DNA of 48,766 nucleotides from Acidicapsa dinghuensis. Its GTDB lineage: Bacteria > Acidobacteriota > Terriglobia > Terriglobales > Acidobacteriaceae. The notes beneath the pieces are model-generated. The model searched no databases, had not been told where the DNA came from, and saw only the letters and a list, made by a program, of their open reading frames with translations. This document shows positions 29,800-47,977 of this stretch, piece by piece. The DNA lies in NCBI RefSeq assembly GCF_025685685.1, contig NZ_JAGSYH010000002.1:1-48766 (forward strand), written 5' to 3'. Each line of letters opens with the position of its first letter. The stretch's first letter is position 1. The translations under genes and the position numbers were made by a program.

Positions 29800-29910
29800 G
29801 CCTTACTCTAACAGGCAGTGATCGCAATCATGTCTGGACACTAGGACGCGAGCGCTTCGATGGCAACGCAAAGGCTACAATCGTGTCTCCGAGCGCCGCT
29901 GACTGACGTG

Positions 29911-29957
29911 AAAAAAGGAAAGCGCCCACCATAAAAGATGGGCGCTTTTGTTTTTTT
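29911..29957 (-). terminator. intrinsic terminator of the ribosomal protein cluster
   Basis: AAAGCGCCCA (29919-29928) and TGGGCGCTTT (29939-29948) form a perfect 10-bp stem with a 10-base loop. On the minus strand TTCC then six T residues follow, to 29911. On the plus strand a T-rich run reaches 29957, so it may work both ways. It lies about 57 bases after the rplQ stop and closes the long tuf-to-rplQ cluster. Confidence 0.85.
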
Positions 29958-30004
29958 GATCAACCGCTGTTAATTACATCGGTTTCATAAACGTTTCAAA
30001 TGTT

Positions 30005-30478
30005 TTATGCGGCTTCTTCGCCGCCCTCTTGCTGCTTCTGAGCCTCAAGCTCCTTTTCGAGAGCTTCGCGCTTCTTAGCCTTGACTTCGGCGCGCTTCTG
30101 GCGCTTCTCGTCGAGTTGCTTCTCGGCTCCGAGGAGCTCGACGAAGGCCTTTTCGGCGCCGTCGCCCTTCTGGAAGCCAGTTTTGACGATGCGCAGATAG
30201 CCGCCCTGACGATCACCGTAGCGGGGCGCGACGGTCTCGAAGAGGCGGGTGACCGACTCATCGGTGGTGAGGAAGGCCAGCGCCTGACGGCGTGAGTGGA
30301 GATCGCCCTTCTTGCCGAGGGTGATCATCTTTTCGACCAGCGGGCGGACAGCCTTGGCCTTGGCCACGGTGGTCTCGATACGATCTTCGAGGATGACGGA
30401 CGTAGTCAGATTGCGCAGCAGCGCGCGGCGATGGTCCGTCTTGCGTCCGAGTTTGAATCCTGCATTGCGATGGCGCAT
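30005..30478 (-). CDS. rplQ: 50S ribosomal protein L17
   Basis: Large-subunit protein, last gene of the alpha operon. The core (MRHRNAGFKLGRKTDHRRAL) and the AFLTTDESVTRLFE block match L17 at 1-115. About 35 charged residues (EKRQKRAEVKAKKREALEKE) extend the C-terminus beyond the usual length, ending QQEGGEEAA. GAGAG precedes the ATG. The 126-base spacer to rpoA holds a GTGTGA-type hairpin. Confidence 0.98.
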   Translation of the reverse strand: MRHRNAGFKLGRKTDHRRALLRNLTTSVILEDRIETTVAKAKAVRPLVEKMITLGKKGDLHSRRQALAFLTTDESVTRLFETVAPRYGDRQGGYLRIVKTGFQKGDGAEKAFVELLGAEKQLDEKRQKRAEVKAKKREALEKELEAQKQQEGGEEAA

Positions 30479-30528
30479 GATTGTTGCTCTCTTTCAATTC
30501 AGTAGCCGCAACTCATGCGGCAGTAACT

Positions 30529-30601
30529 AAGTGTGAGTGTGGAGTGTGAGTGTGAAATGCGACCGGAAGGGGTTCACACTTCACACTTGCACACTCACAC
30601 T
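30529..30601 (-). repeat. GTGTGA-type hairpin repeat between rpoA and rplQ
   Basis: The left arm (30529-30556) is built of GTGTGA/GTGTGG units and the right arm (30573-30601) of their complement, with small bulges and a 16-base loop. The element starts 3 bases beyond the rpoA stop and ends about 50 bases before rplQ, leaving the ribosome-binding leader free. Confidence 0.8.
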
Positions 30602-30604
30602 CGG

Positions 30605-31699
30605 TTAGAAATTCTCGGTTTCGGTCGGCAGCATCATGTCCACCGAGTCCAGAAGCTCATCCTCATCGTCGAAGCGGCCAAAGCCACCGGCGAGCGCAGC
30701 GGAAGGAAGAATGCTGGTCGGTCCGGGTACGGCGTTGCCGTTTTCGTCGATCTTCATGCCGAGCGAAAGTCCCATCTGGGCGAGGATTTCCTTGATCTCG
30801 TTGAGGCTCTTGCGACCGAAGTTCTTGGTCTTGAGCATTTCGGCTTCAGTCTTCTGCACCAGTTCGCCAATGGTCTGGATGTTGGCGTTCTTGAGGCAGT
30901 TATAGCTGCGAACCGAGAGCTCGAGCTCTTCCACAGAGCGATTCAGATTGTCATTGCGGAGCAGCATGTGGCCGGCTTCGCCATGGGTGTCGGTTTCGAT
31001 TTCTTCCTCGAAGTTGATGAAGATGTTCATGTGGTCCTTGAGCAGCTTGGCGGCGAGGCCCACGGCGTCAGCCGGGAGCACAGCTCCGTTGGTCCACACT
31101 TCGAGAGTCAGTTTGTCATAGTCGGTGATCTGGCCGAGACGAGCGGCTTCTACAACGTAGTTCACACGGCGCACAGGCGAGTGCACTGAGTCCACCGGGA
31201 TAAATCCGATCCCTAAGTCGGCGTCGAAGTTCTTGTCGGCGGAGACATAGCCGCGGCCTCGCTTGAGGCGCATTTCCATGTCGAGCCGACCTCCTTCGCT
31301 GACGGTCGCGATGTAGATGTCCTTATCGAGAATCTCGACATCGCCGTCGGCCTCAATCATGCCGGAGGTGACAACGCCGGGCTGATCGGCGCGCAGATAG
31401 AGCGCCTTCGGACCATCGCCATTGAGCTTAAAGGGAATCTGCTTGAGGTTGAGGATGATGTCGGTCGCGTCCTCAACTACGCCAGCAATGGACTGGAACT
31501 CATGCAGCACGTCTTCGATGCGGACGGCGGTAACCGCGGCGCCTTCGATCGAGCTCAACAGGGTACGGCGCAGAGCATTGCCGATCGTGGTGCCAAATCC
31601 GCGCTCAAAGGGCTGTGCGCTGAACTTGCCGTATTTGTCTGTAAGTGTCTCCGCATCGAGTGCAAGACGCTTCGGTTTCTGGAATCCTCTCCACAACAT
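30605..31699 (-). CDS. rpoA: DNA-directed RNA polymerase subunit alpha
   Basis: The assembly scaffold of RNA polymerase, 364 residues. The N-terminal domain dimerises (GFGTTIGNALRRTLLSSIEG near 34-53). A linker leads to the C-terminal domain that binds UP elements and activators (ELSVRSYNCLKNANIQTIGE, then GRKSLNEIKEIL). A tail of about 40 residues after the C-terminal domain makes it longer than the E. coli protein. GGAAA lies before the ATG. It lies between rpsD and rplQ, the usual alpha-operon order, with hairpin repeats on both sides. Confidence 0.98.
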   Translation of the reverse strand: MLWRGFQKPKRLALDAETLTDKYGKFSAQPFERGFGTTIGNALRRTLLSSIEGAAVTAVRIEDVLHEFQSIAGVVEDATDIILNLKQIPFKLNGDGPKALYLRADQPGVVTSGMIEADGDVEILDKDIYIATVSEGGRLDMEMRLKRGRGYVSADKNFDADLGIGFIPVDSVHSPVRRVNYVVEAARLGQITDYDKLTLEVWTNGAVLPADAVGLAAKLLKDHMNIFINFEEEIETDTHGEAGHMLLRNDNLNRSVEELELSVRSYNCLKNANIQTIGELVQKTEAEMLKTKNFGRKSLNEIKEILAQMGLSLGMKIDENGNAVPGPTSILPSAALAGGFGRFDDEDELLDSVDMMLPTETENF

Positions 31700-46682: not shown

Positions 46683-46759
46683 CGTCTTCTTCTTCCGGGC
46701 TGTTCGCCCAACCAACTCTGGGCTCACAGCCCCGTGAAACTCATCTCAGACTTGCTGAG

Positions 46760-47488
46760 TTACTTCTTCTTACCTGCGGAAGCCTTCTTCGAAGCCTTTA
46801 GAGGATCAACCGTACCGGAGCCGGCAAATCCACGGCGCTCGCGCGGCGGAGCCTTGGCCTTCGAGATCAGCACATATCCATCGCGAGGACCAGGAACTGC
46901 GCCCTCAACCATCAGGAGATTCTCTTCCGTGTCGATGCCGCGGATGCGCAGGTTGCGCACCGTCACCTGATCGACGCCGAAGTGGCCAGGCATACGCTGC
47001 CCCGGGAATACACGGGACGGGAAGCTCGATGCACCGATTGAGCCCTGCACCTGGAACATATGTCCGTGCGACTTGGGACCACCGCCAAAGTTGTGGCGGC
47101 GAACAACACCCGCAAAACCACGGCCCTTTGAGGTACCAATCACATCGACAAACTTTTCGTCGGCGAAGATATCCACCAGAACCCGGTCGCCAGCCTTCAC
47201 ATCACCGTTGCCGTCGGTTCCAGCTTCCAACGAAACCTCACGGATTTCCTTCACCGGAGGCGCGTCGCTTTTGGCAAAATGGCCAGCCAGCGGCTTGGTC
47301 ACACGTGACGCCTTGACAAACTCGATCAGGCCGATCTGGGCCGCATCATATCCATCGCCGAGCACAGTCTTGAGCTGCGTCACAACGCAGGGGCCTGCCT
47401 GCAGAACGGTGATCGGGTGCACTTCGCCCTTCTCGTCGAAGACCTGCGTCATGCCGATCTTTTTACCTAAAATTCCAGTTACTGGCAT
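46760..47488 (-). CDS. rplC: 50S ribosomal protein L3
   Basis: Early 23S rRNA assembly protein, 242 residues. It starts MPVTGILGKKIGMTQVFDEK and carries the signature FAGVVRRHNFGGGPKSHGHM. A basic tail (DPLKASKKASAGKKK) extends the usual ~210 residues. Confidence 0.98.
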   Translation of the reverse strand: MPVTGILGKKIGMTQVFDEKGEVHPITVLQAGPCVVTQLKTVLGDGYDAAQIGLIEFVKASRVTKPLAGHFAKSDAPPVKEIREVSLEAGTDGNGDVKAGDRVLVDIFADEKFVDVIGTSKGRGFAGVVRRHNFGGGPKSHGHMFQVQGSIGASSFPSRVFPGQRMPGHFGVDQVTVRNLRIRGIDTEENLLMVEGAVPGPRDGYVLISKAKAPPRERRGFAGSGTVDPLKASKKASAGKKK

Positions 47489-47540
47489 ATTTCCCTTCCC
47501 TCATCATGCCTACAATCAGAGGCACTGCCGGAGTTGCGGC

Positions 47541-47858
47541 TTACTTTTCGAAAGCCTTGATTTCTACGTCCACACCTGCCGGAAGATCAAGCTTCATCAG
47601 CGCGTCCACCGTTTGCTGCGTGGGCTCGAGGATGTCGATCAACCGTTTATGCGTGCGGATCTCGAACGACTCTCGCGACTTCTTGTCGACGTGCGGCGAA
47701 CGCAGCACGCAGTACTTGTTCTTCACCGTCGGCAGCGGGATAGGTCCAGCTACCTGAGCTCCGGTACGCTTCGCGGTCTCCACAATCTCGCCCGTCGAAG
47801 TATCCAGCACTCGGTAGTCGTACGCCTTAAGCCGAATTCGAATTCTCTGTCCTACCAT
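47541..47858 (-). CDS. rpsJ: 30S ribosomal protein S10
   Basis: Small-subunit protein and NusE partner in antitermination, 105 residues. It starts MVGQRIRIRLKAYDYRVLDT, and the loop block VLRSPHVDKKSRESFEIRTH is present. The ATG at 47858 is preferred to a TTG three codons upstream. It heads the S10 block after tuf. Confidence 0.98.
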   Translation of the reverse strand: MVGQRIRIRLKAYDYRVLDTSTGEIVETAKRTGAQVAGPIPLPTVKNKYCVLRSPHVDKKSRESFEIRTHKRLIDILEPTQQTVDALMKLDLPAGVDVEIKAFEK

Positions 47859-47932
47859 CTGCTTCAATCTTTCCCGCGGCGGGCTTTACGCTCTGCCTCT
47901 TCCGCGATACCATTCGAACTTCTCTGGCTAAG

Positions 47933-47976
47933 GAGCAGGTTTGTTATTCCCTGCCCCTTGCCCCTATTCCCTGCTC
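47933..47976 (-). repeat. ATTCCCT-type hairpin repeat between tuf and rpsJ
   Basis: ATTCCCT, GCCCCTT, GCCCCT, ATTCCCT run in 7-base steps from 47946 to 47972. GAGCAGG (47933-47939) and CCTGCTC (47970-47976) close a 7-bp stem around them. The element begins one base after the tuf stop and leaves 74 bases to rpsJ. Confidence 0.7.
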
Positions 47977-47977
47977 A

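What the first reader, a model, noticed from the sequence alone, without database searches (positions are those of the whole stretch)
29905..47977. Hairpin repeats of 6-7-nt units placed 0-8 nt after stop codons throughout the S10-spc-alpha cluster
Eight spacers (after tuf, rpsN, rpsH, rplF, rpmD, rpsK, rpsD and rpoA) hold an inverted repeat made of degenerate 6-7-nt units. Each starts 0-8 nt downstream of the upstream gene's stop and leaves about 50-115 nt before the next start. Three different unit sequences share the same architecture and position, so the pattern is unlikely to come from one insertion history. Spacers with overlapping genes (rplD/rplW, secY/adk, rpsM/rpsK) have none. In mRNA these would be strong stem-loops, possibly 3'-protective, RNase III-cut, or stoichiometry-setting. 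Heptanucleotide tandem repeats are known between genes in cyanobacteria, but I know of no such paired arrays in ribosomal operons.
Basis: partly seen in the sequence, partly recalled or inferred. Interest (0 to 1): 0.85.

Follow-up and report, generated by a model that had tools for sequence, protein, structure and literature searches.

The report
Swappable hairpin repeats after ribosomal stops
In an Acidobacteriaceae bacterium and many of its relatives, the gaps just behind the stop codons of ribosomal-protein genes carry pairs of inverted 6-7-letter repeat arrays, predicted to fold into strong hairpins, whose letters often differ between species at the same place; they likely act as boundary marks on the messenger RNA, which nobody is known to have tested.

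Summary
Of the eight named spacers, seven beat all 20 shuffles for inverted pairing (tuf is matched by 1 of 20), seven beat all 100 for 6-8-nt periodicity (rpsH does not), and all fold with z of -3.09 or lower. In 81 Acidobacteriaceae loci, 247 of 1507 spacers of this cluster pass both tests; period 7 in 225; median 6 nt behind the stop. Arrays are far denser here than in genome samples: 6/24 against 1/203 co-directional spacers (own), 19/23 against 4/107 (Occallatibacter savannae), 15/23 against 2/84 (AB60). The repeated 'words' vary, yet AG recurs in the 5' arm in 218 and CT in the 3' arm in 220 of 247. Words are hardly inherited with the slot; in one sister pair (97.4% gene identity) six of 13 spacers had their array replaced by another word. 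One word family shares a loop core whose 11 untrained matches in six genomes all lie in or just ahead of ribosomal-protein or secE-nusG genes. The arms show no G-U preference overall, so selection on RNA pairing is unproven; plain hairpins in these spacers do show it. Precedents: paired GGGAATC heptamers behind stops in Xanthomonas, TAACTGA repeats in ribosomal operons of Beggiatoaceae. A new variant of a known kind.

The parts
47944..47974 (-). tuf spacer: GGGAATA/GGGGCAA-type heptamer array (5' arm; pairing part 47950-47962)
   Evidence: pairing matched by 1 of 20 shuffles; fold z -4.28
47926..47939 (-). tuf spacer: 3' pairing arm
40284..40308 (-). rpsN spacer: 5' arm, TAGCTNN word
40213..40237 (-). 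rpsN spacer: 3' arm (AGCTAGA)
39709..39736 (-). rpsH spacer: 5' arm, TAGCTNN word (degenerate)
   Evidence: periodicity test not passed
39637..39664 (-). rpsH spacer: 3' arm
39012..39027 (-). rplF spacer: 5' arm, GTGTGA word
   Evidence: fold z -3.42
38981..38998 (-). rplF spacer: 3' arm
37763..37796 (-). rpmD spacer: 5' arm, GTGTGA word
   Evidence: fold -57.4 kcal/mol, z -12.4
37718..37749 (-). rpmD spacer: 3' arm
32621..32646 (-). rpsK spacer: 5' arm, GTGTGA word
   Evidence: fold z -8.4
32585..32610 (-). rpsK spacer: 3' arm
31851..31873 (-). rpsD spacer: 5' arm, GTGTGA word
   Evidence: fold z -7.3
31814..31837 (-). rpsD spacer: 3' arm
30573..30601 (-). rpoA spacer: 5' arm, GTGTGA word
   Evidence: fold z -7.25
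30530..30556 (-). rpoA spacer: 3' arm

Best explanation
Each array is a stop-anchored cassette of two inverted arms of a 6-7-nt word that is predicted to fold into a hairpin in the mRNA, and it most likely works as a cistron-boundary stem-loop that shields the 3' side of the upstream cistron and sets it apart from the next one in long housekeeping mRNAs. Shown: place, pairing, polarity, enrichment in the ribosomal cluster of three genomes, the same slots filled with different words in different species, and replacement of arrays by other words in one sister pair. Inferred: that selection keeps the presence of a strong stem just behind the stop and not its letters, so that any heptamer cassette will do and the letters turn over by slippage and replacement. 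Not shown: any effect on mRNA decay, processing or translation. The process that makes new cassettes is unknown; scarcity of the hairpin nuclease SbcCD in this family may permit them.
For: Place: 144 of 247 arrays start within 8 nt and 212 of 247 within 15 nt of the stop; of 137 with room elsewhere, 74 within 8 nt against 25.9 expected. Compartment: arrays in 6/24, 19/23 and 15/23 cluster spacers of three genomes against 1/203, 4/107 and 2/84 co-directional spacers in samples of the same genomes, and 0 of 98 divergent ones. The sampled hit in the own genome is the nusG-rplK spacer; other arrays there, found by their word, lie in the tuf-secE interval, rplM-rpsI, prs-rplY, rplY-pth, atpA-atpG, atpD-atpC and mreB-mreC spacers (tuf, mreC, rplM and rpsI named by eye). 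Slot kept, letters changed: at 92% or more r-protein identity, shared slots have the same word in 9 of 62 (0.15), about as often as different slots (0.134); in sister loci L082/L086 six of 13 spacers carry a different array while the measured flanking genes are 96-100% identical. Plain stem-loops in the same spacers (185 spacers with pairing but no periodicity, any genome) are stop-anchored too, 72 of 156 testable within 8 nt (24.7 expected), and show a sense-RNA wobble excess, 120 G.T against 71 A.C, p 0.0005. The loop core of the AGCT-word family: 19 whole-genome matches at E 0.1 or lower in six genomes, 8 of them members of the model; all 19 lie in S10-spc-alpha loci, the rplJ-rplL or rplM-rpsI spacer, or ahead of secE-nusG; 17 on the gene strand.
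Against: The arrays themselves show no wobble excess (310 G.T, 285 A.C, p 0.33); only the 39 short-loop arrays lean that way (77 against 54, p 0.054, a subset chosen afterwards). Arms found without regard to pairing fit their own partner better than same-word arms of other arrays in only 64 of 98, and in 31 of 57 within one genome. 64 period-7 segments have no detected partner. 37 of 81 loci have no array, so they are not needed for ribosomal operons. Arrays lengthen the spacer (median +38.5 nt, longer in 23 of 24 spacers) and their slots match the hairpin slots of array-free loci only loosely (rho 0.42, p 0.04). In four of the six swapped spacers of L082/L086 at least one version has only one arm by my test. 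Some arrays lie beside genes that are not core (ABC permeases, PilB/GspE-like, dipeptidase-like).
Confidence: 0.4

Rival explanations
1. The arrays are a DNA-level repeat process without use to the cell: 7-nt slippage plus template switching at hairpins makes and rewrites them, strong transcription of the operon promotes it, and they survive only where they break neither a gene nor a leader.
For: No sense-RNA wobble excess; variable unit positions in the two arms drift nearly independently; words hardly inherited and arrays replaced; a 21-nt expansion at rpmD in L086; SbcD matched at E 0.001 or lower in 5 of 40 family genomes (above the cut-off in 2) against 13 of 14 control genomes (above it in 8), so long hairpins may be tolerated; arrays lengthen spacers. 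Slippage as source of bacterial heptamers has been proposed (read in PMC4692102 and PMC4679880, second-hand).
Against: Mere tolerance does not explain 25-83% occupancy in the ribosomal cluster against 0.5-4% of co-directional spacers elsewhere, the position behind the stop, or the polarity. Array-free loci come from genomes without SbcD too, so its absence does not set rich and poor apart.
Confidence: 0.36
2. The arrays act like E. coli REPs that lie within 15 nt of a stop: they hinder the terminating ribosome and lower the output of the upstream gene, so setting stoichiometry within the operon.
For: 212 of 247 arrays start within 15 nt of the stop, the distance at which E. coli REPs are reported to lower translation (PMC12306157, passages).
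Against: They follow genes whose products are needed in similar amounts (general knowledge), and the same slot is filled or empty in close relatives.
Confidence: 0.1
3. The arrays are double-stranded DNA sites: AG-heptads on both strands, pointing towards the middle of the spacer, bound by a protein (topology, gyrase-like, or the ends of a small mobile element).
For: Convergent polarity in paired arrays (AG recurs in the 5' arm in 218 of 247, CT in the 3' arm in 220), in unpaired ones (35 AG-type, median 4 nt behind the stop; 17 CT-type, median 19 nt before the start; 12 neither), and in samples of two other genomes (14 of 18 at stops, 9 of 9 at starts); related loop cores at different slots.
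Against: Palindromic AGCT words blur the rule (CT recurs in the 5' arm in 72, AG in the 3' arm in 68). Five-letter cores vary too much (CAGTG, CAGTT, CAGGG, TAGCT, CAGCT and more) for an ordinary sequence-specific protein. Target duplications and linked genes were not searched for.
Confidence: 0.1

Closest known systems
GGGAATC / GGGGA(C/T)T heptamer repeats of Xanthomonas and Nostoc (Rehm et al. 2015, PMC4692102; abstract, sections 10, 13, 14, 16 and passages seen)
   Same: Heptamer units; mostly intergenic between co-directional genes, rare between divergent ones; often within 50 bp of the stop on the coding strand; 70 and 75 inverted pairs in convergent orientation in two genomes; function unknown.
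   Different: That study follows one G-rich, quadruplex-capable word; 83% of its sites have such a repeat at the same place in a second species. Here several words per genome, mostly without G tracts, other words at the same slot in close relatives, and concentration in ribosomal-protein operons (the phrase 'ribosomal protein' does not occur in that paper's main text).
TAACTGA direct repeats of Beggiatoaceae, cyanobacteria and Bacteroidetes (MacGregor 2015, PMC4679880; abstract and sections 3, 7, 9, 16 seen)
   Same: Heptamer; TAACTGA is the reverse complement of the TCAGTTA-type unit in some 5' arms here; sits just ahead of start codons, as the CT arm does when it is alone; category J genes over-represented, some repeats inside ribosomal operons.
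   Different: Direct arrays there (one inverted case of 170 sets), mostly ahead of starts and not behind stops.
REP / BIME elements, incl. stop-proximal REPs of E. coli (PMC12306157, passages seen)
   Same: Inverted repeats behind stop codons; proposed mRNA roles.
   Different: REPs have consensus motifs; here arms are tandem words that differ between copies and species.
STRR heptamer repeats of cyanobacteria (recalled, no call)
   Same: Intergenic heptamer tandems.
   Different: Not known to me as paired or stop-anchored.

Membership tests
GGGAATC-type quadruplex heptamer repeats | 7-nt unit | tested here: met
   best lag 7 in 225 of 247 paired arrays, 6 in 11, 8 in 11; three of the window's six are best at lag 6
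GGGAATC-type quadruplex heptamer repeats | G tract in each unit, quadruplex-capable | tested here: not met
   GTGTGA, TAGCT, CAGTT and CAGCT words have no GGG; CAGGG/TAGGG make 59 of 434 counted YAG units; of the window's arrays only tuf has GGG
GGGAATC-type quadruplex heptamer repeats | within 50 bp of the stop on the coding strand | tested here: met
   212 of 247 within 15 nt
TAACTGA repeats | TAACTGA unit as direct repeat just ahead of a start codon | tested here: not met
   window words are GTGTGA, TAGCTNN, GGGAATA; arrays are stop-anchored
REP/BIME | conserved palindrome sequence across copies in a genome | tested here: not met
   words differ between copies of one genome (listing)
REP/BIME | RAYT transposase in the genome | not tested
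   no search made
Intrinsic terminator | GC-rich stem followed at once by a T run | tested here: not met
   no terminator-like site on the gene strand at any of the eight arrays (the scan allows loops of 3-8 nt only; no T run is seen by eye behind the arms either); the cluster's own terminator is at 29948-29919 behind rplQ
Known RNA family (Rfam 15) | match at gathering score | tested here: not met
   8 weak matches up to E 1 in 29000-48766, none at its gathering score

The most novel reading that the evidence does not exclude
Acidobacteriaceae carry an unknown writing process that erases hairpin cassettes behind the stop codons of ribosomal-protein operons and writes new ones in their place: arms and loop change together, the new word differs from the old, the two arms share the word, and the polarity (AG towards the centre) is kept. 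The mRNA then uses the slot, not the sequence.
Probability: 0.2. Interest if true: 0.88.

Novelty: new variant of a known kind. Interest (0 to 1): 0.67.

Why it matters
Ribosomal operons are among the most conserved gene blocks in bacteria, yet their spacers here carry long predicted hairpins whose letters change between close relatives while the position is kept. If the hairpins act, selection would be keeping the shape and place of an RNA element but not its letters, a kind of element that sequence-based RNA searches miss (no Rfam match here). If they do not act, they point to a DNA process that favours the spacers of strongly transcribed genes. Either way the open question what intergenic heptamer repeats do becomes testable: relatives with filled, empty or rewritten slots at the same gene are natural experiments.

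Tried and rejected
Own-versus-other arm pairing was first scored on arms chosen by pairing (biased); redone with arms found independently, where most of the effect vanished. A second loop model for CAG-word arrays (R2, 9 members) found its members, a few partial matches and no wide family in six genomes. R1 found no core in the window's genome (best E 0.56); that place lies between two ABC-permease genes (by eye). SbcCD loss as the factor that sets rich and poor genomes apart: rejected. All-frame stop codons as the purpose of a 7-nt period: stops in all three frames in 180 of 247 against 106.6 in shuffles, but a shuffle breaks the period itself, so this shows no purpose. Hairpin inside the AGCT core: 81% of cells paired against 46-62% when slid, but 66 of 500 shuffles reach that percentage and 22 of 500 the covariation score; RNAalifold's own structure for A1 has no compensated pair. 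Plasmid search with the rpmD-rplO stretch: 12 records, the five listed match rplO only. Ideas from memory not tested: primase start trinucleotides CTG/CTA as source of the polarity; a TRAP-like protein reading NAG repeats; a linked RAYT or reverse transcriptase.

Results against a genome-wide reading for the window's own genome: in its 800-kb sample single period-7 segments are no commoner between genes than other periods (7 at the threshold where periods 5 to 14 give 5-15), unlike Occallatibacter (22 against 1-7, period 14 apart). The built-in control (pattern read backwards, 46 matches against 43) is of no use because it reads the same repeat; that gave 28 against 40, so matches with three mismatches there are largely chance, while the 21 with at most two fall in six inverted sites. 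In one search my TAGC pattern had the wrong period and found nothing.

Limits: my own gene caller marks only 77-82% of sampled bases as coding, so spacer counts outside the cluster are rough; the core searches scored only 150 first-look candidates per genome; A1 was picked by hand from related loops; L082 and L086 are metagenome bins (L086 contig at 1.4-fold coverage by its title); exchange of spacers between strains by homologous recombination would look like replacement; many family genomes are incomplete bins.
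Full report
What is in the window. The S10-spc-alpha cluster lies on the minus strand from tuf (48766) to rplQ (30005) (genes named by eye and order). Five spacers (behind rplF, rpmD, rpsK, rpsD, rpoA) hold inverted GTGTGA(A/G) arrays, two (rpsN, rpsH) inverted TAGCTNN arrays, and the tuf spacer a GGGAATA/GGGGCAA array with a shorter partner. 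Six of 24 window spacers pass both the periodicity and the pairing test; rpsH passes pairing only, tuf periodicity only. All eight fold better than shuffles (z -3.09 to -12.4). The cluster's terminator is at 29948-29919 behind rplQ. No Rfam family reaches its gathering score.

Own genome. GTGTGAAGTGTGA with at most one mismatch occurs at 43 places. TAGCTTCTAGCTNCTAGC occurs at 40 places with at most three mismatches (control 28) and at 21 with at most two; the 21 fall in six sites, four of which show both strands: rpsN, nusG-rplK, the tuf-secE interval and rplM-rpsI; the two single-strand ones are a place ahead of zwf and C17:127.9k, whose partner has three mismatches. Outside the cluster, 15 of 23 distinct places with my other word patterns, in stretches partly chosen because they hold the motif, start at most 13 nt behind a called stop with the array arm on the coding strand. 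Genes beside them include prs-rplY-pth-rpsF, atpA-atpG, atpD-atpC, mreB-mreC, transketolase and zwf (mreC by eye), but also PilB/GspE-like and dipeptidase-like genes. In 40 regularly spaced stretches of 20 kb, paired arrays are in 1 of 203 co-directional, 0 of 33 convergent and 0 of 43 divergent spacers of 35-400 nt; the one is nusG-rplK. Single period-7 segments are not enriched in that sample.

Relatives. One scan kept the best 80 of 478 loci around rplF, records titled Acidobacteria, Acidobacteriaceae, Terracidiphilus, Edaphobacter, Granulicella, Occallatibacter, Silvibacterium and a few others. With the window that is 81 loci and 1924 spacers, 1507 of 35 nt or longer. 324 are periodic, 432 inverted, 247 both; the best lag is 7 in 225; 44 of 81 loci have at least one, 37 none, among them 7 of the 8 records titled Edaphobacter. 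The words vary: CAGTG, TAGCT, CAGTT, CAGGG, CAGCT, TAGCC and others. In samples of two array-rich genomes paired arrays are in 4 of 107 (Occallatibacter savannae) and 2 of 84 (AB60, without stretch L220) co-directional spacers, against 19 of 23 and 15 of 23 in their ribosomal clusters. TCAGTTNTCAGTTNTCAG with two mismatches has 365 matches in the former genome against 3 for the backward control, so arrays are spread there beyond the cluster. Outside the family, ten loci of the same order gave none (62 spacers) and ten of other families of the class gave one each in five (93 spacers), with other words, 0-13 nt behind the stop.

Rules of place and polarity. 144 of 247 arrays begin within 8 nt of the stop. 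Of 137 with room to lie elsewhere 74 do, against 25.9 expected and at most 42 in 2000 simulations. AG recurs every 7 nt in the 5' arm in 218 of 247 and CT in the 3' arm in 220; because AGCT words read alike on both strands, CT also recurs in the 5' arm in 72 and AG in the 3' arm in 68. Of 64 period-7 segments without a detected partner, 35 are AG-type at a median of 4 nt behind the stop, 17 CT-type at a median of 19 nt before the next start, 12 neither. In the two sampled genomes AG points away from the nearest gene end at 14 of 18 stops and 9 of 9 starts within 60 nt; 10 further segments were farther off and those without a clear orientation were dropped. Convergent orientation of pairs is in print for Xanthomonas (PMC4692102, section 10).

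Letters against slot. Between loci with r-protein identity of 92% or more, shared slots carry the same word in 9 of 62, about as often as different slots (0.134); between 86 and 92% in 113 of 600 (0.19 against 0.125), so there is little inheritance (words could be given to 212 of 247 arrays). Among the window's close relatives the GTGTGA word is at rpmD, rpsD and rpoA also in L154 and L053 but not in L155; at rpsN, rplF and rpsK neighbours have the same word, other words or none; by the strict test L154 has 2 of 24 and L155 0 of 21. Sister loci L082 and L086 (mean 97.4% identity over 13 genes) have six of 13 spacers at 94-100% identity, six with another array word (rplN, rplE, rpsH, rplR, rplO, infA) and one (rpmD) with a 21-nt expansion; measured genes beside the six are 96-100% identical (rplO not measured). 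At rplR and rplO both versions are paired arrays; in the other four at least one version is one-armed by my test. Array-bearing spacers are longer by a median of 38.5 nt than those of array-free loci.

Arms. Within one array the two arms share the commonest 5-letter word in 89 of 147, against 312 of 852 between arrays of one genome. Beyond the word, own partners fit better than same-word arms of other arrays in 64 of 98, and within a genome in 31 of 57. Arm mismatches are 310 G.T and 285 A.C, so the sense RNA is not favoured; the same count in 185 plain hairpins of the same set of spacers gives 120 and 71 (p 0.0005). By loop length only the 39 arrays with loops of 12 nt or less lean to G.T (77 to 54, p 0.054), as do 13 GTGTGA hairpins of the window's clade (18 to 8, p 0.076).

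Loop cores. Among 163 loops of 25-110 nt, 8 pairs from different slots match at E 0.001 or lower (0 in shuffles), all on the same strand, two of them through the near-identical L082 and L086 copies. AGCT-word arrays share a core (alignment A1, 12 members picked by hand; model R1). R1 finds untrained copies in further slots. In six whole genomes it has 19 matches at E 0.1 or lower, 8 of them model members; the 11 others lie in S10-spc-alpha loci (8), the rplJ-rplL and rplM-rpsI spacers, and about 250 nt ahead of secE-nusG; the two antisense matches are among the weakest (those genes named by eye). Only 150 first-look candidates per genome were scored. A like model for CAG words was not productive. 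The window's genome has no core match.

Reading. Position, polarity and compartment are kept while letters change. I favour an mRNA boundary stem-loop because the place is just behind the stop, inside strongly expressed operons (general knowledge), and because plain hairpins at the same place show RNA-level selection. The missing wobble signal in the arrays, the unpaired segments and the loose agreement of array slots with hairpin slots (rho 0.42) keep a functionless DNA process close behind. SbcD is matched in 5 of 40 family genomes (above cut-off in 2), rich and poor alike, against 13 of 14 controls (above it in 8); this could permit long hairpins but explains no difference.

Literature. Eight searches listed no report of paired heptamer arrays in ribosomal operons or of heptamer repeats in Acidobacteria; only their listed results were seen, and the library lacks most subscription journals. 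The nearest reports are PMC4692102 and PMC4679880; slippage as the source of heptamers was read there second-hand. The E. coli REP distance effect is from passages of PMC12306157, which cites an earlier study not seen.

Noticed in passing
L084 17783-18133 (+); perhaps also the long rpoA-rplQ spacers of L078 and L111: The rpoA-rplQ spacer of a Granulicella holds a complete 116-aa 23S rRNA-intervening-sequence protein (PF05635, E 2e-37); similar opening codons are visible by eye in L078 and L111. An odd place for such a gene.
   Followed up: partly
L154 4116-4295 (-): In the window's close relative G010 the rpsK-rpsD slot holds a 59-aa DUF1272 gene (PF06906, E 4e-23) where the window has an array.
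   Followed up: partly
window 29919-29948: 12-bp stem with T runs on both sides behind rplQ: looks like a bidirectional intrinsic terminator, the ordinary end of the cluster.
   Followed up: no
L180 12444-12553; L190 12321-12390: Occallatibacter savannae has long arrays of about 10-15 units between genes (TCAGTTG passing into TTAGCTA; GTAGCCA repeated), as if one word turns into another along the array.
   Followed up: no
L220 4427-4753: AB60 has an array of a TTCACCT/TTCACTT word beside a CAGTG array in one spacer: two word families side by side.
   Followed up: no
Acidobacteriaceae genomes G061-G100: SbcD is missing or below cut-off in 38 of 40 genomes of this family, many of them incomplete bins; this may itself matter for palindrome stability.
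   Followed up: partly
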